From the NCBI GenBank assembly GCA_001871015.1, contig MNUO01000103.1, positions 1 to 7,098 on the forward strand: a DNA stretch of 7,098 bases, written 5' to 3'. Position 1 is the first letter of the stretch, and every line of letters starts with the position of its first letter. Origin of the DNA: Candidatus Desantisbacteria bacterium CG1_02_38_46 (GTDB taxonomy: Bacteria; Desantisbacteria; UBA1551; UBA1559). Position numbers and translations under genes: made by a program. Shown one piece after another: positions 1 to 7,098 of the stretch. The notes below the pieces were generated by a model, which was not told the DNA's origin, made no database searches, and was given only the letters and a program-made list of their open reading frames with translations.

Positions 1-353
1 AAAGCACCTATCACAACTACCACAAGAAATGAAAGAACAATCAAGTCTAATATCTTACTTAAATTTTCCCTGTTGATGTTCTTTGCAAAAACAAAATAAG
101 CAATTGGATATGCGCAAAATGCTATAAATCCATATATGCTTAATAGTTTGTTTACAGAAGTTAATGTTGAAACAAAAACAACTGCGGTAAAAATAATTAT
201 AGCCCAATCAAGCGCATTCTTCTTTTCTGATAATTTTATTTTTTTCAAAGAACTGAAAAATGAAATAAGAAGACCTATGTACATAACTATGTTTATCAGC
301 GGCAGCCAGAATATAGTTATGAATAGGCCTTTTTCAGCAATTTTAGTTTTCAT
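1..353 (-). CDS. O-antigen ligase-like polytopic membrane protein, N-terminal part (cut by window edge)
   Basis: Reading from the ATG at 353 down to base 1 gives 117 residues with no stop, so the gene continues beyond the window. Hydrophobic segments lie at about residues 9-34, 49-64, 72-90 and 102-117, separated by short basic loops (LKKIKLSEKK, KNINRENLSK). The order of a transmembrane segment, a LDW...STLTSVNKLLSIYG stretch and a further segment ending in a KN-I-like loop resembles the N-terminus of the O-antigen ligase/polymerase (Wzy_C) superfamily. Members act on lipid-linked sugar polymers at the inner membrane. The catalytic periplasmic loop is not in view, so the family is inferred from the N-terminal pattern only. 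No clear Shine-Dalgarno sequence precedes the ATG. The frame is open back to a TAA at 387-389 without another good start. It could instead be some other polytopic membrane protein. Confidence 0.55.
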   Translation of the reverse strand, partial: MKTKIAEKGLFITIFWLPLINIVMYIGLLISFFSSLKKIKLSEKKNALDWAIIIFTAVVFVSTLTSVNKLLSIYGFIAFCAYPIAYFVFAKNINRENLSKILDLIVLSFLVVVVIGA

Positions 354-359
354 AAATTT

Positions 360-461
360 TAAAAAGGGGACGCTTCTACTTATGAATTAAAAAGATGTCC
401 ACCCTACAAATAAATTTCACTCTTGACAGAGCAGAAAAAAAGTAGAAGCGTCCCCTTTTTA
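360..461. repeat. Palindromic element with 22-bp perfect inverted arms
   Basis: Bases 360-381 and 440-461 are exact reverse complements (22 bp) around a 58-base centre. The arms contain AAAAAGGGGACGCTTC and its complement. A second, AT-rich pairing links 437-444 (AAAAAGTA) with 460-467 (TACTTTTT) next to the corrinoid gene stop, so two alternative hairpins are possible. The element fills the gap between the corrinoid gene and the membrane-protein gene. It resembles REP/BIME or MITE-like repeats. The right arm shares AAAAAGTAG and GTCCCCTTTT with the repeat at 5747-5797, so the two belong to related families. It could reduce read-through between the genes, but there is no GC-rich stem with a U-tract typical of an intrinsic terminator. 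Confidence 0.8.
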
Positions 462-1123: not shown

Positions 1124-1184
1124 GTAGTGGTCGTTGCGAGGTCGCCTCGGGCGACCGAAGCAATCTAATGGAATTGCCCACTAC
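1124..1184. repeat. Palindromic repeat with GTAGTGG/CCACTAC ends and a different GC-rich core
   Basis: The element begins GTAGTGG (1124-1130) and ends CCACTAC (1178-1184), the same ends as the repeats at 2243-2393 and 3563-3636. The core is different: a perfect 7-bp hairpin GGTCGCC-TCG-GGCGACC (1140-1156) flanked by pairing TTGC (1134-1137) and GCAA (1160-1163). The core resembles the widespread TTGCGAG...GAAGCAATCT type of intergenic repeat (from memory). It lies between the PPi-type phosphofructokinase and the corrinoid gene. The CCACTAC end supplies the TAG stop of the phosphofructokinase on the minus strand. Confidence 0.8.
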
Positions 1185-2215
1185 TTTAAAAATACTTTTG
1201 CAAAACTCCACCATTCCTCATCTACTGTCTTTAATTTTGCCACTGCTTGCTCAAGCGGAACTGCCTCAATCCTATTGCCTTTAAGGCATGCCATCATTCC
1301 AAATTTTCCTTCTTTTATTAAATCAACTGCTTTAACTCCCACTCTTAAGCTCAGAATCCTGTCAAAGAGTGTTGGCGAACCTCCTCTCTGCATGTGTCCG
1401 ATCACTGAACTCCTTGCTTCAATTCCTGTCCTTTTTTCAATTTCTTTTTCCAAAGTCACTGCCACAGCTCTTTTTTTAAGAATGATGTGGCCGAAAGCAT
1501 CTTTTTCCTGCTCTTCCTCATCTTCCTCATCTTCCTCTGAAAATTCTATTCCTTCAGAAACAACTACAATTCCATAGCCCTTCCTTTCCCATACTTTCTT
1601 GAGGTGAGTGCACATTTCATCAAAATTAACTTTTTGTTCCGGAATAAGTATCCAGTCTGCTCCACCTGCAATACCCGTAAAAAGAGCAACCCAGCCGGCA
1701 TGCCTTCCCATAACTTCTAACACCATAATCCGATGATGTGATTTTCCTGTGTCTCTTAATCTTTCTACGGCATCGATGGCAATGGTGGCAGCACTATCAA
1801 ATCCGAAAGTATAATCAGTAGCAGAAAGGTCATTGTCCATTGTTTTTGGAACTCCAACAATTTTTAAACCTTTCTTGTAAAACTTATTTGCCACCCCTAA
1901 AGTATCATCTCCGCCAATTGCAATTAAAGCATCCAAACCTATATTTTTAAATGTCTCCATGCATTTCGGAACCATTTCATCTTCTTTTTTAAAAGGATTC
2001 GTTCTGGAACTTCCTAAAATAGTCCCGCCCTTTGAAATAATTTCATCAGCAGTTTTTAAATCCAGGGACATCGTTAAACCTTTAATTAAACCTGCCCAGC
2101 CATTTTTTAAACCAATAACTTCAATTCCATAATCAAGGGAGCGCAAAATAATTCCACGGATTGACTGGTTCAATCCCGGACAATCTCCACCACCAGTTAA
2201 AACACCTACCTTCAT
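1181..2215 (-). CDS. pfp: 6-phosphofructokinase, predicted PPi-dependent (group III-like)
   Basis: This 344-aa cytoplasmic enzyme interconverts fructose-6-phosphate and fructose-1,6-bisphosphate. The N-terminal GGGDCPGLNQSIRG (8-21) is the phosphate-binding start of the family. GGDDT (101-105) and PKTMDND (123-129) place Asp at position 104 and Lys at 124. In E. coli PfkA numbering, which fits here without offset, that pair marks PPi-dependent enzymes; ATP enzymes have Gly104. The catalytic Asp is D127. MGRHAGW (169-175) and GHMQRGGSP (273-281) bind the sugar phosphate, with R268 and H274 conserved. An acidic run of Glu/Asp at about 226-237 is an unusual insert in a surface loop. The start has AAAGGAGG about 9 bases upstream. 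The end (FAKVFLK) is abrupt, and its TAG lies in the flanking repeat, so the last few family residues may be missing. PPi use would make the step reversible. This is inferred from residues and not proven. Confidence 0.93.
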   Translation of the reverse strand: MKVGVLTGGGDCPGLNQSIRGIILRSLDYGIEVIGLKNGWAGLIKGLTMSLDLKTADEIISKGGTILGSSRTNPFKKEDEMVPKCMETFKNIGLDALIAIGGDDTLGVANKFYKKGLKIVGVPKTMDNDLSATDYTFGFDSAATIAIDAVERLRDTGKSHHRIMVLEVMGRHAGWVALFTGIAGGADWILIPEQKVNFDEMCTHLKKVWERKGYGIVVVSEGIEFSEEDEEDEEEQEKDAFGHIILKKRAVAVTLEKEIEKRTGIEARSSVIGHMQRGGSPTLFDRILSLRVGVKAVDLIKEGKFGMMACLKGNRIEAVPLEQAVAKLKTVDEEWWSFAKVFLK

Positions 2216-2242
2216 TTTGAAAACCCTCCTTTACTGCTACTG

Positions 2243-2393
2243 TAGTGGTCGAGTTTACTCGACTTTTCTGCAGAGCAAGCTCTGCCACTACCTGTAGTGG
2301 TCGAGTTTACTCGACTTTTGGCAGAACAATCTCTGCCACTACCTGTAGTGGTCGAGTTTACTCGACTTTTGGCAGAGCAATCTCTGCCGCTAC
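2243..2393. repeat. Three tandem copies of a 51-52-bp cloverleaf-type palindromic repeat
   Basis: Three copies start near 2243, 2295 and 2346 (to within a base). The first copy divides exactly into an outer arm GTAGTG, hairpin GTCGAGTTTACTCGAC (7-bp stem, TT loop), linker TTTTCT, hairpin GCAGAGCAAGCTCTGC (7-bp stem, AA loop) and outer arm CACTAC. Copies 2 and 3 keep the first hairpin and carry changes in the second (GGCAGA...TCTGCC stem). The third copy's last arm is CGCTAC, which still pairs with GTAGTG through one wobble. The block fills the gap between aldolase and the downstream phosphofructokinase, stopping just before the latter's ribosome binding site. Its last arm contains the aldolase TAG stop. 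It is non-coding despite an open plus-strand frame. Confidence 0.88.
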
Positions 2394-3538
2394 AGTAGTC
2401 CTGCGGAGCCGAACATTATTGCAAGACTCTTAACATGCTCGGCTATTCTGTTTTTGACTAAAGTCATAACTTCTATGAATGCTTCGTCTTTAAAACTGCG
2501 GTAATTTTCTCTCAGTAATTGTGGGTCCATTTTGACAACCGGTTCTAAATAACTTCTCGGGTCAACCAGGCTTCCTGAATCAACAGGATTTCCGTCTTTG
2601 TCTTTTGCAGGAGTTTCTCCTGTGAATACCTTTTTTATTACACTGAGAATTTCTGATTTTTTATCTACATCCGGATGGTCATTCAAATATTTCCTGAGCG
2701 TAGCTGTTATACCTAATCTTAAATCAGTGTCTATGTTTACTTTTCTTATTCCTTCTTTAATTGCTGCTTTTATCATATAATCAGGAATACCGCTTGTCCC
2801 CTTTAATGAACCGCCGTACTGATTTATTTCTTGGACAAGTTCTCTGGGCACGGTAGATGAACCATGACCAACCAGAAAGTGGTCAAGATTCTGGTGGTTT
2901 GCCTTTATTCCGGCATAACTATCAGTTACTATTCCTACATTCAGAGCATCAGTTTTACCCTTGTTAGGTCCATGCGAGGTTCCGTAAGCCACCGCAAGAG
3001 CATCTACCTTGCTCCTGTCAAAAAATACAGGTACAAACCTGGGGTCTGCGTAAGTTGTTTTTCCATAAGCAACATCCTCTTCCACACCTGCTAATTTACC
3101 ATATTCACCTTCTACGCTAACACCCTTTGGGTGAGCATAATCTACTATTTCCTTGGTAACTTCTATGTTCTGGATTTCATCTAATTTTGAAGCATCAATC
3201 ATTACAGAACTAAAACCATTGTCAACACAATCCTTTGCACTTTTAGTATCTCCGTGGTCAAGATGCAGTGCAAGAGGAAGAGTGATTTTCATATCTTTTA
3301 TTGCCTTTAATACCATAACCTGGATTTTATCCGCACCACCCTGGAATTTATTCGCACCCCTGCTCGCCTGAATTATTCCAGGAGCTTCTGCTTTGTACAA
3401 ACCTTCTAATATTCCTTGTGCCTGAGCATAAAAATTCACATTAAATGCGCCGATAGCAGATGGATGCCCTCTCAAAGAAGCAAATTCTGCAGCCTGCATT
3501 AAAGGTACTATGGAACATAACTTTGGCTCTTCTGACAT
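2390..3538 (-). CDS. fba: Class II (zinc-dependent) fructose-bisphosphate aldolase
   Basis: The 382-aa product reversibly splits fructose-1,6-bisphosphate into dihydroxyacetone phosphate and glyceraldehyde-3-phosphate. Class II signatures run in order: AFNVNFYAQAQGILEG (31-46); HLDHGD (92-97), with D94 the proton-transfer residue and H95 a zinc ligand; SVMIDAS (111-117); VSVEGEYGKLAGVE (140-153); YGTSHGPNKG (185-194), with H189 a ligand; VGHGSS (223-228), with H225 a ligand; and the phosphate-binding KVNIDTDLR (266-274). It is longer than most class II enzymes (about 300-360 aa). It has a C-terminal tail (VDPRSYLEPVVK, 325-336) ending FGSAG, as in the longer Calvin-cycle-type subgroup. AAAGGAGA precedes the ATG by about 6 bases. 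The stop TAG falls inside the adjoining repeat, so only the last residue or two could be repeat-derived. It is flanked on both sides by phosphofructokinase genes acting on its substrate. Confidence 0.95.
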   Translation of the reverse strand: MSEEPKLCSIVPLMQAAEFASLRGHPSAIGAFNVNFYAQAQGILEGLYKAEAPGIIQASRGANKFQGGADKIQVMVLKAIKDMKITLPLALHLDHGDTKSAKDCVDNGFSSVMIDASKLDEIQNIEVTKEIVDYAHPKGVSVEGEYGKLAGVEEDVAYGKTTYADPRFVPVFFDRSKVDALAVAYGTSHGPNKGKTDALNVGIVTDSYAGIKANHQNLDHFLVGHGSSTVPRELVQEINQYGGSLKGTSGIPDYMIKAAIKEGIRKVNIDTDLRLGITATLRKYLNDHPDVDKKSEILSVIKKVFTGETPAKDKDGNPVDSGSLVDPRSYLEPVVKMDPQLLRENYRSFKDEAFIEVMTLVKNRIAEHVKSLAIMFGSAGLL

Positions 3539-3562
3539 TTTATTTCTCCTTTTTTTAGCACT

Positions 3563-3636
3563 GTAGTGGTCGAGTTTACTCGACTTTTCTGCAGAGCAAG
3601 CTCTGCACTTCCAGAGTGCCTACTTTTGGCCACTAC
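3563..3636. repeat. Cloverleaf palindromic repeat with an extra third hairpin
   Basis: This copy has the same GTAGTGG start, first hairpin and GCAGAGCAAGCTCTGC second hairpin as the block at 2243-2393. About 24 further bases follow, containing a third small hairpin GCACT-TCCAG-AGTGC (3605-3619), before the closing CCACTAC (3630-3636). It sits between the ATP-type phosphofructokinase stop (TAA, 3643-3645), six bases away, and the aldolase start. Confidence 0.85.
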
Positions 3637-3642
3637 ATTTAA

Positions 3643-4614
3643 TTAGATTGCAAGAATCTGCGCCAACTCATATAATTCTTTATCAATCTTTTTCTCGTTT
3701 TTCAACATATATTCCAGATCGTAATCAATTATTTTTTCTTCCCGGATTCCCACAATTTTAGGATTGCTGGATTCCTGCATATCTTTTAAAACCTGAACCG
3801 CATGTATCCCAAAAAGGCTGGCAATCTTTCTACTCCTTGCAGTCGGTGAACCGCCTCTCTGTATATAACCAATAATGCTCACTTTCACTTCAAAACCAGT
3901 GCATTTTTTAATCTGGTCGGCAATTGCAAAAGAATTCCCCGCTCCTTCAGCCATTATGATAATATAAGAAGTCTTACCCTTTTCGCGGTTGTGTAAAATA
4001 CTTTCACAAATTACATCTAAATCATATTTAACTTCCGGAAGAAGAACAATCTCTGAACCACTGGCCAACCCCACTTCAAGAGCAAGAAAACCCCTTTTTC
4101 TTCCCATAACTTCTATAATAAAAATACGTTCGTGTGAAAAAGCTGTATCTCTAATTTTATCAATTGCCTCTAATGCAGTATTAATTGCCGTATCGAATCC
4201 AACAGTGTAATCAGTACCACAGACATCATTATCTATGGTAACGGGAATTCCAACAATTGGGATTTTGTATTGCTCATATAGTTGACCTGCTGCGGTAAAG
4301 GAACCGTCTCCACCTATAACAACCAGTCCTTCTATATTATTGTCTTTTATCACTTTAATTGCTTTTTCTCGTCCTTCTTTTGTTCTGAATTCCTCACAGC
4401 GCGCAGTTTTAAGAATGGTTCCTCCAAGATTAATAATTCCGCTTACTGAACGTAACTCCATCGGGATAATTTCGCCGCCGATAAGACCAGCGTATCCTCT
4501 TCGGACACCGAATACTTTAAAACCGTAGTAAATTGCGCTGCGCACTACTGCTCTTATGCAAGCGTTCATTCCAGGTGCATCGCCACCGCTGGTCATTACT
4601 GCAATTCTTTCCAT
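3643..4614 (-). CDS. pfkA: 6-phosphofructokinase, ATP-type (PfkA-like) with altered substrate-site residues
   Basis: The 323-aa product matches bacterial PfkA in length (E. coli, 320 aa). It would phosphorylate fructose-6-phosphate to fructose-1,6-bisphosphate in the cytoplasm. Family motifs: TSGGDAPGMNACIRAVVR (8-25), TARCEEF with R72, GGDGSF (101-106) with Gly at 104 as in ATP users, TIDND (126-130) with catalytic D128, SHERIFIIEVMGR (160-172), AEGAG (222-226) with E223, and YIQRGGSP (250-257). Three positions differ from E. coli PfkA. Val125 stands where Gly124 is, Lys244 where Arg243 is, and Tyr250 where His249 is; the last two residues contact fructose-6-phosphate. The GAGGA ribosome binding site lies about 7 bases before the ATG. 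It follows accA after a tandem repeat and precedes the aldolase. The enzyme class is certain. Phosphoryl donor and kinetic role are inferred. Confidence 0.93.
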   Translation of the reverse strand: MERIAVMTSGGDAPGMNACIRAVVRSAIYYGFKVFGVRRGYAGLIGGEIIPMELRSVSGIINLGGTILKTARCEEFRTKEGREKAIKVIKDNNIEGLVVIGGDGSFTAAGQLYEQYKIPIVGIPVTIDNDVCGTDYTVGFDTAINTALEAIDKIRDTAFSHERIFIIEVMGRKRGFLALEVGLASGSEIVLLPEVKYDLDVICESILHNREKGKTSYIIIMAEGAGNSFAIADQIKKCTGFEVKVSIIGYIQRGGSPTARSRKIASLFGIHAVQVLKDMQESSNPKIVGIREEKIIDYDLEYMLKNEKKIDKELYELAQILAI

Positions 4615-4628
4615 TTTCTATCCTCTTC

Positions 4629-4758
4629 TGTAAGCAGGACATAAAGTCCTGCGCTACAGTTTTGATGTCAGGACTAAAGTCCTGCGCTACAGTTTTGATG
4701 TCAGGACTAAAGTCCTGCGCTACAGTTTTGATGTCAGGACTAAAGTCCTGAGTTACAA
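4629..4758. repeat. 33-bp tandem repeat, about four copies
   Basis: Exact 33-base units lie at 4666-4698 and 4699-4731. A diverged first copy precedes them (from about 4629) and a partial, diverged copy follows (4732 to about 4758). Each unit holds the palindrome CAGGACT-AA-AGTCCTG followed by CGCTACAG. The block separates accA from the ATP-type phosphofructokinase. Its last copy overlaps the end of accA: the TAA stop (4753-4755) is in the TTACA that replaces CTACA of the other copies. The period being a multiple of three leaves a plus-strand frame open, which explains an apparent repetitive peptide there; it is not a gene. Confidence 0.9.
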
Positions 4759-5746: not shown

Positions 5747-5797
5747 GGGGTCAGGTCTTGCTTTGTGCTTTGTGAAAAAGTAGCCTGTCCCCTTTTA
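5747..5797. repeat. Short intergenic palindromic repeat
   Basis: GGGGTCAGG (5747-5755) pairs with CCTGTCCCC (5784-5792) except for one central T/T mismatch, giving a 4+4-bp stem with a 28-base loop. The right part, AAAAAGTAG...TGTCCCCTTTT, is like the right arm at 440-460 but with a different middle. The element fills the whole gap between the outer-membrane protein stop (TAA at 5798-5800) and the accA ribosome binding site. Repeats of this look are often mobilised by REP-associated Y1 tyrosine transposases; none is present in the window. Confidence 0.7.
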
Positions 5798-6538
5798 TTA
5801 AAAAAGTTTGTTGGTATATCCAATGTGAATTTCACGTGTTGACTGCACGGCACCACTTATAAATAAATTTCTGGCAAAAAAACCTACCCTTAATGTAGGA
5901 AGTGGGGTATACTCTATACCGAAATTGTAACTTATGTATATGGAACTAGCGTCATCGTAACCTGACTCAATTTCACCTATAGCCGAAAACTCAGGTGTGA
6001 AGAAAAAATCACAACCAATAAAGAAACCAATTCCCACATTTTCGCCTACTGGCCTATTAAGTCCTCCGTGAATATGAGAAAACATCTTTCCTGCAGAAAA
6101 TTCCTTGCTTACAATCCCATAAAAACCTTTTCCCTTTTTCCCCCAGTAATTTGAAGAATCAAAACCCAGACTTATAGTGGGCCAGACTCTTGAGGTAATC
6201 TCATCAAAAATTCTAAACTTTGCAAGAACGCCAGGATTTCCGTTAGGGATTGAAGGTGTGCTAGAACCTACCAAACCATCCACGCTCAGCGAAAGCCCCA
6301 GAAAAAGTGAATCTAAAAGCCCCAGGCGAATTTTACTAAGAACACCTCCATCGCCGTAAACACGAAAATCAATACTGCAACTTCCTTTCTGAATAGGATA
6401 AGCAGTCGGAATTCCTATTAAATCATAGGGAAGTTGCGGCTGAGCATATAATACAGGACGCAGCAAGCAGTGGACAGTGAACAGTATAAAAACAGACGCA
6501 ATAACTTTTACCTTTAAACTTTTGTCTTTTACTTTCAT
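5798..6538 (-). CDS. Outer-membrane beta-barrel protein (YjbH-like/uncharacterised)
   Basis: The 246-aa product has a basic N-terminus and a hydrophobic stretch (about 11-31) ending LYAQ, a likely signal peptidase I site after A32. The rest alternates short hydrophobic beta-like strands with Gly/Asn/Asp turns (DFRVYGDGG 57-65, LFLGLSLSVDGLVG 78-91, TISLGFDSSNYWG 121-133, KGFYGIVSKEF 137-147, HIHGGLNRPVGENVGIGFFIGCDF 155-178). It ends YTNKLF; a terminal Phe is the usual recognition signal for outer-membrane barrel assembly. The mature size suggests a barrel of about 10-12 strands. The GFDS...KGFY.V.SK.F...H.G.N pattern resembles uncharacterised YjbH-like proteins. The ATG at 6538 is chosen over an in-frame GTG at 6562 because AGGAG sits 6 bases before it. 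It is the first gene of the minus-strand run. Substrate or function is unknown. Confidence 0.8.
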   Translation of the reverse strand: MKVKDKSLKVKVIASVFILFTVHCLLRPVLYAQPQLPYDLIGIPTAYPIQKGSCSIDFRVYGDGGVLSKIRLGLLDSLFLGLSLSVDGLVGSSTPSIPNGNPGVLAKFRIFDEITSRVWPTISLGFDSSNYWGKKGKGFYGIVSKEFSAGKMFSHIHGGLNRPVGENVGIGFFIGCDFFFTPEFSAIGEIESGYDDASSIYISYNFGIEYTPLPTLRVGFFARNLFISGAVQSTREIHIGYTNKLF

Positions 6539-6551
6539 TTTGACTCCTGAT

Positions 6552-6623
6552 ATAATATTCACATGGGTTCTTGTAATAGGTTTTAAAGGTCTTGTAGAGT
6601 CTGTAGCCTCAAGTGAATATTAT
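6552..6623. repeat. 11-bp inverted repeat in the leader of the outer-membrane protein gene
   Basis: ATAATATTCAC (6552-6562) and GTGAATATTAT (6613-6623) are exact reverse complements 50 bases apart. The pair lies upstream of the outer-membrane gene start and just before the plus-strand promoter. It could be an operator pair or a hairpin in the 5' untranslated region. The AT-rich composition lowers its significance. Confidence 0.5.
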
Positions 6624-6626
6624 TAT

Positions 6627-6655
6627 TTGATTTTTTGCATAAAATCTTGTATAAT
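6627..6655 (+). promoter_or_regulatory. Sigma-70 type promoter reading toward the transposase
   Basis: TTGATT (6627-6632, -35) is followed by exactly 17 bases and a perfect TATAAT (6650-6655, -10). Transcription would begin near 6662. It would cover the leader and the IS110 transposase. A consensus-like TTGACA also lies at 6684-6689 but has no good -10 at the right distance within the window. Confidence 0.65.
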
Positions 6656-6719
6656 ATAGTTCAAAGATACCCTTAAAGCAGGATTGACAATTTTTAACGC
6701 TCCTTGTGGGTTACAGGGA

Positions 6720-6940
6720 TTCTCAAACTCTGTTTGAGGGGGGTATTGAAGTATCAACCACCTCGAGAAAATTGAAATTTACCCCGTTTCCTCAAAGATT
6801 TTTTGACCCTGTGGTACCACTTCTGAAAGATTATTGCTTCCTGCTCTCTACGCCTGAGAATATTCATTTAGGATATTATGGGTCGCCGATAATTCATGGC
6901 GACACCATTCATCATCAGGCTATATGTAGCGTAGAAAAGC
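6720..6940 (+). ncRNA. Candidate IS110 bridge RNA (structured leader)
   Basis: Three structured parts can be drawn in order. First, a stem-loop CTCAAAC-TCT-GTTTGAG (6722-6738). Second, a domain closed by GAAGT (6748-6752) with ACTTC (6819-6823) and ACCAC (6757-6761) with GTGGT (6811-6815), enclosing a small TCAAA/TTTGA hairpin (6792-6806). Third, a domain closed by GCT-TCTACGC (6843-6853) with GCGTAGA-AGC (6929-6940), then an internal loop (6854-6877 and 6909-6928). Its tip is a 10-bp stem with one bulged A (6878-6887 with 6898-6908) around a 10-base loop. Bridge RNAs of IS110 elements, known from IS621, lie upstream of the recombinase and have a 5' stem-loop plus target- and donor-binding internal loops, so position and layout fit. 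The folding was done by eye. The region is also an open frame joined to the transposase, so coding is not excluded. Confidence 0.5.
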
Positions 6941-7011
6941 AAGAAGAACTAATCCTGCAAAAAGAGTATCGAGTTTTCAAAGAAAGTCCCAAAGGGGACG
7001 AAGGAGGTTCT

Positions 7012-7098
7012 ATGTTTTACCTGGGTATAGATGTAGCAAAGAAGTCCTCAAGGTATCTGGTGCTGGACAGTGAAGGGAAAAGGGTAGTAAGTTTTAGT
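7012..7098 (+). CDS. IS110-family DEDD transposase/recombinase, N-terminus (cut by window edge)
   Basis: Only 29 residues are visible, beginning MFYLGIDVAKKSSRYLVLD. The GIDVAKKS start with its Asp is the first acidic position of the RuvC-like DEDD catalytic domain of IS110 transposases, and LDSEGKRV follows as in that family. AAGGAGG ends four bases before the ATG, which supports this start. The frame is also open upstream to 6688, with only a GTG (6706) as a possible earlier start. The serine-containing C-terminal domain that would confirm the family, and whether the gene is intact, lie outside the window. The gene runs opposite to all other genes here. Confidence 0.8.
   Translation, partial: MFYLGIDVAKKSSRYLVLDSEGKRVVSFS

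What the first reader, a model, noticed from the sequence alone, without database searches (positions are those of the whole stretch)
6720..6940. Putative bridge RNA in front of an IS110 transposase, with three-domain fold
The long leader of the transposase can be folded by eye into a 5' stem-loop (6722-6738) and two larger domains (6748-6823 and 6843-6940). The third domain has a closing stem, two long single strands (6854-6877 and 6909-6928) and a bulged 10-bp tip, which is the arrangement of guide-bearing loops in IS110 bridge RNAs. If right, the internal-loop strands should be the target or donor guides of this element. Seen: the complementary segments. Known: IS110 bridge RNA architecture from IS621. 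Inferred: that this leader is one.
Basis: partly seen in the sequence, partly recalled or inferred. Interest (0 to 1): 0.75.

Follow-up and report, generated by a model that had tools for sequence, protein, structure and literature searches.

The report
Bridge RNA of SD-targeting IS110 element
The stretch in front of this truncated transposase gene is a genuine IS110-type bridge RNA, a guide RNA that tells a jumping gene where to land, and in this family the guide copies the ribosome's own signal sequence, so most copies land exactly at the ribosome-binding sites of genes.

Summary
The window is a contig that breaks inside an IS110-group element: left end at 6547, recombinase ATG at 7012, 29 codons left. 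The leader encodes a bridge RNA. In 12 homologous leaders (Omnitrophota, Nitrospirota, host genome) 28 of 43 drawn pairs show compensatory changes; slid controls give 8-10. A covariance model found two held-out relatives at 146 and 61 bits. [quoted passage not shown] The donor guide covaries with the right end (P = 0.003); the window's right donor guide (TCAG) matches its own deviant left end (CTGA).
New: the left target guide is CCUCCU/CUCCU, like the anti-Shine-Dalgarno end of 16S rRNA, and most copies sit in a Shine-Dalgarno sequence 8-13 nt from an ATG; a minority sit inside genes at SD-like sequences. IS900 is a precedent for SD targeting (my knowledge, not found in the library). Not testable here: transcription, recombinase binding, transposition, the window's own right end.

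The parts
5798..6538 (-). Neighbouring gene whose Shine-Dalgarno sequence (AGGAGTCAAAATG, minus strand) abuts the element's left end; 246 codons from ATG at 6538
   Evidence: ATG lies 8 nt from the core; ORF of 246 codons
6540..6546 (+). Left half of the target site (t1-t7, TTGACTC), host DNA
   Evidence: nothing upstream of TCCTGATATAAT is shared by the three copies in this genome; the IS110 boundary is set by homologues
6547..6548 (+). CT core at the left end of the element
   Evidence..CT[G/A]GTATAAT starts every left end; right ends finish ..GGATnTCT
6549..6556 (+). [quoted passage not shown]
   Evidence: joined to a right end found on contig C61 of the same genome it gives TTGACT-N17-TATAAT
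6556..6620 (+). 5' stem-loop of the bridge RNA (arms ATATTCAC/GTGAATAT, enlarged loop)
   Evidence: a hairpin follows the -10 box in 14 of 14 elements
6627..6656 (+). Possible internal promoter TTGATT-N17-TATAAT; not conserved in homologues
   Evidence: scan expectation 1.5 sites, so weak
6688..6836 (+). Target-binding domain: outer stem 6688-6691/6833-6836, inner stem 6706-6718/6807-6820
   Evidence: helices 1 and 2; 13 of 15 pairs have compensatory changes
6696..6704 (+). Left target guide AACGCTCCT (anti-Shine-Dalgarno-like; CTCCT matches the left flank CTC-CT)
   Evidence: position by analogy with IS621 (PMC11208158)
6719..6806 (+).
6826..6830 (+). Right target guide AAAG (6826-6829) and handshake A6830 (would pair with d7 = T)
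   Evidence: RTG equals the complement of core + 2 nt in 8 of 9 homologues with a known right flank
6838..6945 (+). Donor-binding domain: stems 6838-6844/6939-6945, 6848-6852/6930-6934, tip stem 6878-6887/6898-6908
6870..6875 (+). Left donor guide AGGATA
   Evidence: covaries with the right end in homologues, P = 0.003
6911..6919 (+). Right donor guide AT(C)ATCAG plus handshake G6919 (pairs with t7 = C); TCAG complements the left end CTGA
   Evidence: geometry as in IS621 (PMC11208158)
7001..7098 (+). RBS (GGAGG) and first 29 codons of the IS110 recombinase (MFYLGIDVAKK..); the rest is lost at the contig end
   Evidence: weak PF01548 match; 57% identity to the N-terminus of the G261 recombinase

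Best explanation
Window 6547-7098 is the left part of an IS110-group insertion sequence. Its 465-nt non-coding left end encodes a bridge RNA. By analogy with IS621, the excised circle joins right end and left end and so builds a sigma-70 promoter (TTGACT-N17-TATAAT) that transcribes the RNA (inferred). The RNA has a 5' stem-loop, a target-binding loop and a donor-binding loop. The donor loop pairs with the junction (left guide AGGATn with the right end, right guide TCAG/CCAG with core CT plus GA/GG). The target loop pairs with the landing site (left guide CCUCCU or CUCCU, right guide AAAG). Because the left target guide resembles the anti-Shine-Dalgarno end of 16S rRNA, the element is sent to Shine-Dalgarno sequences on the opposite strand, usually just in front of a start codon. 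It recombines at CT and leaves AGGAGG next to the neighbouring gene. Shown here by comparison: ends, structure, covariation, guide-donor matches, SD-type sites. Inferred: transcription, binding by the recombinase, strand exchange.
For: Three copies in the genome share sequence only from TCCTGATATAAT on; a relative's fragments in G261 also begin at CCTGGTATAAT. 12 leaders: 28/43 pairs compensated, 91.3% of cells paired, covariation score 0.438 against 0.05-0.12 when slid and 0 of 500 shuffles as high. RNAalifold recovers the same main helices unaided. Held-out elements L093 and L088, not used for the model, score 145.9 and 60.9 bits. Unrelated IS110 loci L004, L034 and L069 give no hit. Held-out L093 has guide ATACCUCCU equal to its target ATACCTC-CT in 9 of 9, and LDG AGGACG equal to its deviant right end AGGACG. 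LDG/LD permutation P = 0.003; register-free LTG/LT P = 0.038. RE-LE junction: 17-18-nt spaced promoter in the joined ends. 12 of 16 left ends have an ATG of an ORF >= 80 codons 8-16 nt away, 3.4% expected at random positions of the same loci; both held-out elements as well. Recombinases carry PF01548 and PF02371. IS621 anatomy: PMC11208160, PMC11208158.
Against: The element in the window is cut off, so its own right end, right target half and recombinase integrity are unknown. The only right end found in the genome (C61) has AGGAAA, one mismatch to the window's AGGATA, and right flank CTCCC, which does not match AAAG beyond the core; it may belong to another copy. Target-guide covariation is weak (RTG P = 0.11); RDG P = 0.08; each rests on one informative change. 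A few copies (L002, L067, probably L038; L033 undefined) are not at gene starts. The apical extension in the window has no counterpart outside this genome, so its fold is unsupported. No RNA data.
Confidence: 0.93

Rival explanations
1. The leader is a structured 5' untranslated region that only regulates recombinase translation; the match of loop strands to the element's ends is shared ancestry.
For: The RNA ends shortly before the recombinase RBS; small RNAs have been proposed to regulate the IS110 member ISPpu9 (PMC11208160).
Against: Two-domain IS621-like anatomy with core, handshake and guide positions conserved; LDG follows the right end in four variants; the structured region sits behind a junction promoter 280-465 nt from the gene.
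Confidence: 0.04
2. The leader is coding: the open frame 6706-7011 is an N-terminal extension of the recombinase.
For: 102 codons open in frame with the recombinase; L093 and L088 also have open frames of 246 and 135 nt.
Against: No Pfam match; nearest in-frame stop 15-54 nt upstream in L033, L052, L053, L054, L055, L057, L067, L068; the conserved RNA segment is read in different frames in window and L093; compensatory changes follow base pairs.
Confidence: 0.01
3. The RNA is a bridge RNA, but the Shine-Dalgarno siting reflects survivorship (insertions between genes are tolerated) and not an anti-SD guide.
For: LTG-LT covariation is weak because guides and targets vary little.
Against: The core lies inside the SD itself, typically 8-11 nt from the ATG, always in the same orientation; the guide column reads CTCCT/CCTCCT in nearly all RNAs; copies inside genes also sit at SD-like sequence (L002, L067); L093 matches 9 of 9.
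Confidence: 0.1

Closest known systems
IS621 and IS110-group bridge RNAs (PMC11208160, PMC11208158)
   Same: Long left end with RNA; 5' stem-loop, target loop, donor loop; CT core; junction-formed sigma-70 promoter; LDG/RDG/LTG/RTG order; handshake bases; ATA..TAT short repeats around the donor; PF01548 + PF02371 recombinase
   Different: Different guides (anti-SD target, AGGATn donor); RNA region roughly 220-270 nt in relatives and about 385 nt in the window (estimated from the -10 box to the end of the donor domain) against 177 nt in IS621; IS621 targets REP elements
IS900/IS901 of mycobacteria (IS110 family; from my own knowledge, not found in the paper library)
   Same: Reported to insert between ribosome-binding site and start codon of genes in one orientation
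   Different: Mycobacterial elements; no sequence compared here; as far as I know the guide basis of that targeting has not been shown
seekRNA of ISEc21 and IS1111 elements (PMC11187229)
   Same: Non-coding-region RNA guiding a DEDD recombinase to its target
   Different: IS1111 elements carry the RNA downstream of the gene; here it is upstream

Membership tests
IS110-group bridge RNA | Encoded in the non-coding left end upstream of a DEDD recombinase with PF01548 and PF02371 | tested here: met
   for homologues; in the window only the first 29 codons remain
[quoted passage not shown]
[quoted passage not shown]
   52 of 54 LDG positions, P = 0.003; RDG 55 of 56. The window's own right end is not available
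IS110-group bridge RNA | Target guides complementary to the target | tested here: met
   RTG 35 of 36; LTG 5-9 of 9 with the best run at the core; covariation itself is weak
IS110-group bridge RNA | CT core at both ends and scarless rejoining of the target | tested here: inconclusive
   CT present at both ends in nine elements with both ends; no empty site in a sister genome was compared
IS110-group bridge RNA | Promoter formed across the circular junction | tested here: met
   by sequence only
IS110-group bridge RNA | RNA is made, bound by the recombinase and needed for insertion | not testable with these tools
   needs small-RNA sequencing, binding and transposition assays
IS1111 group | Long right end with RNA downstream of the gene and 7-17-bp subterminal inverted repeats | tested here: not met
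   RNA upstream; right ends end about 50-190 nt after the stop with only short ATA/TAT repeats

The most novel reading that the evidence does not exclude
A clade of IS110 elements in Omnitrophota, Nitrospirota and the host lineage carries a bridge RNA whose target guide mimics the 3' end of 16S rRNA (CCUCCUU). Any bacterial genome thereby offers hundreds of landing sites that lie outside coding sequence and whose Shine-Dalgarno sequence is rebuilt on insertion. The guide would be fixed by selection instead of drifting with each new target.
Probability: 0.7. Interest if true: 0.65.

Novelty: new member of a known kind. Interest (0 to 1): 0.55.

Why it matters
It adds a covariation-supported bridge RNA clade from uncultured phyla, with natural variants in donor and target guides. 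The anti-SD guide offers an RNA-level explanation for translation-start targeting by IS110 relatives such as IS900, which can be tested directly by guide swaps. It also shows how a guide aimed at a universal functional motif gives broad but safe target choice.

Tried and rejected
Plasmid and phage collections: no match to the leader. Viral contigs: no relatives. Rfam at gathering and permissive thresholds: nothing. The other complete IS110 in this genome (L004, C53) is unrelated and has no such RNA. PF02371 hits on C113 lie in a RuvA-like gene, false positives. A 21-bp match on C101 is only a shared promoter-like stretch. Idea that 6543-6640 is a separate palindromic target repeat: rejected, no copies without the element, and homologues place the left end there. 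Idea that the CTGGGA/TCCCAG stem closes the donor loop: kept in the counted structure, but RNAalifold prefers AATAT/ATAT and leaves CCAGG largely free for the donor, which fits IS621 better. MAFFT misplaced the window's target domain because of the apical extension, so 6719-6806 was cut out for the counts. LTG-LT test with a fixed register was not significant (P = 0.22).

Full report
What the window is. The window is the whole of contig C5 of a 1.73-Mb, 133-contig draft genome. It ends inside an insertion sequence: an ATG at 7012 behind a GGAGG starts MFYLGIDVAKKSSRYLVLDSEGKRVVSFS, a weak but correct match to the first 25 positions of DEDD_Tnp_IS110. Two more contigs of the same genome end inside the same element (C86, 100% identical to window 6642-6776; C97, 90%), so it is multicopy and breaks the assembly.

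Finding relatives. The 29 residues led to a full recombinase in G261 (57% identity over 28 residues). Its protein led to seven more loci, mostly in Omnitrophota and Nitrospirota, and later to L066, L067, L068, L088 and L093. The three full-length ones scanned carry PF01548 plus PF02371. Plasmids, phages and viral contigs gave nothing.

Ends. In this genome the three copies share sequence only from TCCTGATATAAT (window 6545) on. In G261 three copies begin at C(C)TGGTATAAT. Across 14 elements the left end reads CT[G/A]GTAT[A/T][A/T]T, with CTGATATAAT in the window. Right ends read ..TTATAGGATnTCT with small variations, then unique flank. With the core taken as CT, the left end in the window is 6547 and the non-coding left end is 465 nt, against 278-342 nt in relatives. 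Joining right and left ends gives sigma-70-like promoters with 17-18-nt spacers, for example TTGACA-N17-TATAAT in L093, and TTGACT-N17-TATAAT for the right end found at the start of contig C61 of this genome joined to the window's left end. This is the junction promoter described for IS621 (PMC11208160).

Structure. The leader folds better than shuffles (z = -4.1). In 12 leaders aligned together (window with its apical extension 6719-6806 removed), a structure of 43 pairs has 91.3% standard pairs, 28 pairs with compensatory changes and a covariation score of 0.438. Sliding the partner strand by 1-3 columns gives 8-10 pairs and 0.05-0.12; none of 500 shuffles reaches the observed values. The structure was drawn by me from these sequences, which favours it over slid versions for the percentage paired. 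RNAalifold, unaided, finds the same main helices. A covariance model from these 12 found the held-out L093 (145.9 bits) and L088 (60.9 bits; recombinase 44% identical) and nothing in three unrelated IS110 loci. A hairpin directly behind the -10 box occurs in all 14 left ends. It is the natural 5' stem-loop; in the window it is 6556-6620.

The hairpin 6722-6738 and most of 6740-6806 belong to an extension of the target-domain tip that no relative outside this genome has. The third domain was placed correctly. The guides are best assigned by IS621 geometry (PMC11208158): LTG 6696-6704, RTG 6826-6829, LDG 6870-6875, RDG 6911-6918, handshake bases A6830 and G6919.

Guides and DNA. LDG equals the right end in 52 of 54 positions over nine elements, with variants AGGATG, AGGATA, AGGATC and AGGACG each matched in the same element (only L052 departs); permutation P = 0.003. 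RDG: 13 elements have left end CTGG, with CCAG in 12 of their RNAs; the window alone has CTGA and TCAG. RTG: AAAG with CTTT, and L053 alone ATAG with CTAT; one mismatch in 36 positions. LTG: 5-9 of 9 positions match in the best register, best at the core; P = 0.22 in a fixed register and 0.038 if the linker may be 0-2 nt. So donor guiding is supported by covariation, and target guiding by matching plus one or two informative changes.

Target. The left target guide column reads CTCCT or CCTCCT(T) in most RNAs, the sequence of the 3' end of 16S rRNA (established knowledge). The left flank of the element is, correspondingly, the Shine-Dalgarno of a gene on the opposite strand: AGGAGTCAAAATG in the window, AGGAGGATGTATG in L051, AGGAGGTCTCATG in L054. 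Of 16 left ends, 12 have an ATG of an ORF of at least 80 codons 8-16 nt from the core; random positions in the same loci do so in 3.4%. Two of those twelve (L037, 16 nt; L038, probably inside a cytochrome gene by my reading of the joined flanks) are doubtful, so 10 of 16 is the cautious count; L053 sits before a 55-codon ORF. The held-out L088 and L093 also fit. L002 and L067 lie inside genes at SD-like sequence (by translation of the flanks), as expected if sequence, not the start codon, is read. Because the core CT stays on both sides, the neighbouring gene keeps AGG(A/G)G in front of its ATG, while its own promoter is moved away; what this does to expression is unknown.

Alternatives. A coding leader is excluded by in-frame stops close to the ATG in most relatives and by the frame differing between window and L093. 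A purely regulatory leader does not explain the guide-end covariation. Survivorship alone does not explain why the recombination core sits inside the SD in one orientation.

Placement and novelty. Every sequence-testable feature of an IS110-group bridge RNA is met except comparison with an empty site, which I did not do. It is therefore filed as a new member of a known kind. Targeting of translation starts is, from my own knowledge, reported for IS900; searches of the paper library for it, and for bridge RNAs with anti-SD guides, found nothing, which is weak evidence because most subscription journals are absent. The anti-SD guide and the enlarged RNA of this genome are the points that could interest a specialist.

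Limits. The window's recombinase, right end and right target half are missing. The right end on C61 differs from the window's LDG by one base, and its right flank does not match AAAG beyond the core; it may be another copy. A probable right half of L057 on another contig (L065) also has a flank (CTAA) that does not match AAAG. No expression or binding data exist.

Noticed in passing
window 2239-2388 and 3560-3606: Repeated palindromic intergenic unit TGTAGTGGTCGAGTTTACTCGACTTTT..GGCAGAGCAATCTCTGCC, four copies between genes; similar short stretches occur in C53 (L004).
   Followed up: no
window 4635-4757: Tandem 33-bp repeat (TAAAGTCCTGCGCTACAGTTTTGATGTCAGGAC); the same unit occurs in inverted orientation near the element on contig C86 (L002 954-1062).
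   Followed up: no
window 342-381 and 440-479: Long inverted repeat around AAAAAGGGGACGCTTCTACTT, resembling REP-type palindromes; GGGGTCAGGTCTTG..CCTGTCCCC at 5749-5795 looks related.
   Followed up: no
window 1181-2215, 2390-3538, 3643-4614: Two different phosphofructokinase-like genes flank a fructose-bisphosphate aldolase-like gene, followed by an acetyl-CoA carboxylase alpha-like gene (by sequence reading, not searched).
   Followed up: no
L076 1-230 (contig C61 start): Right end of a copy of the same IS family fused to the 3' end of an AbrB-like gene; this right end contains CTCGCCTCGGGCGAG, a motif whose core TCGCCTCGGGCGA is also seen around window 1141-1153.
   Followed up: partly
L036/L038 and L037 (G261): Internally deleted copies of the element that keep the left end, one of them with both ends, possibly non-autonomous derivatives.
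   Followed up: partly
L068/L070: Decayed copy whose donor guide (CCCG) no longer matches its left end, in keeping with a broken recombinase.
   Followed up: no
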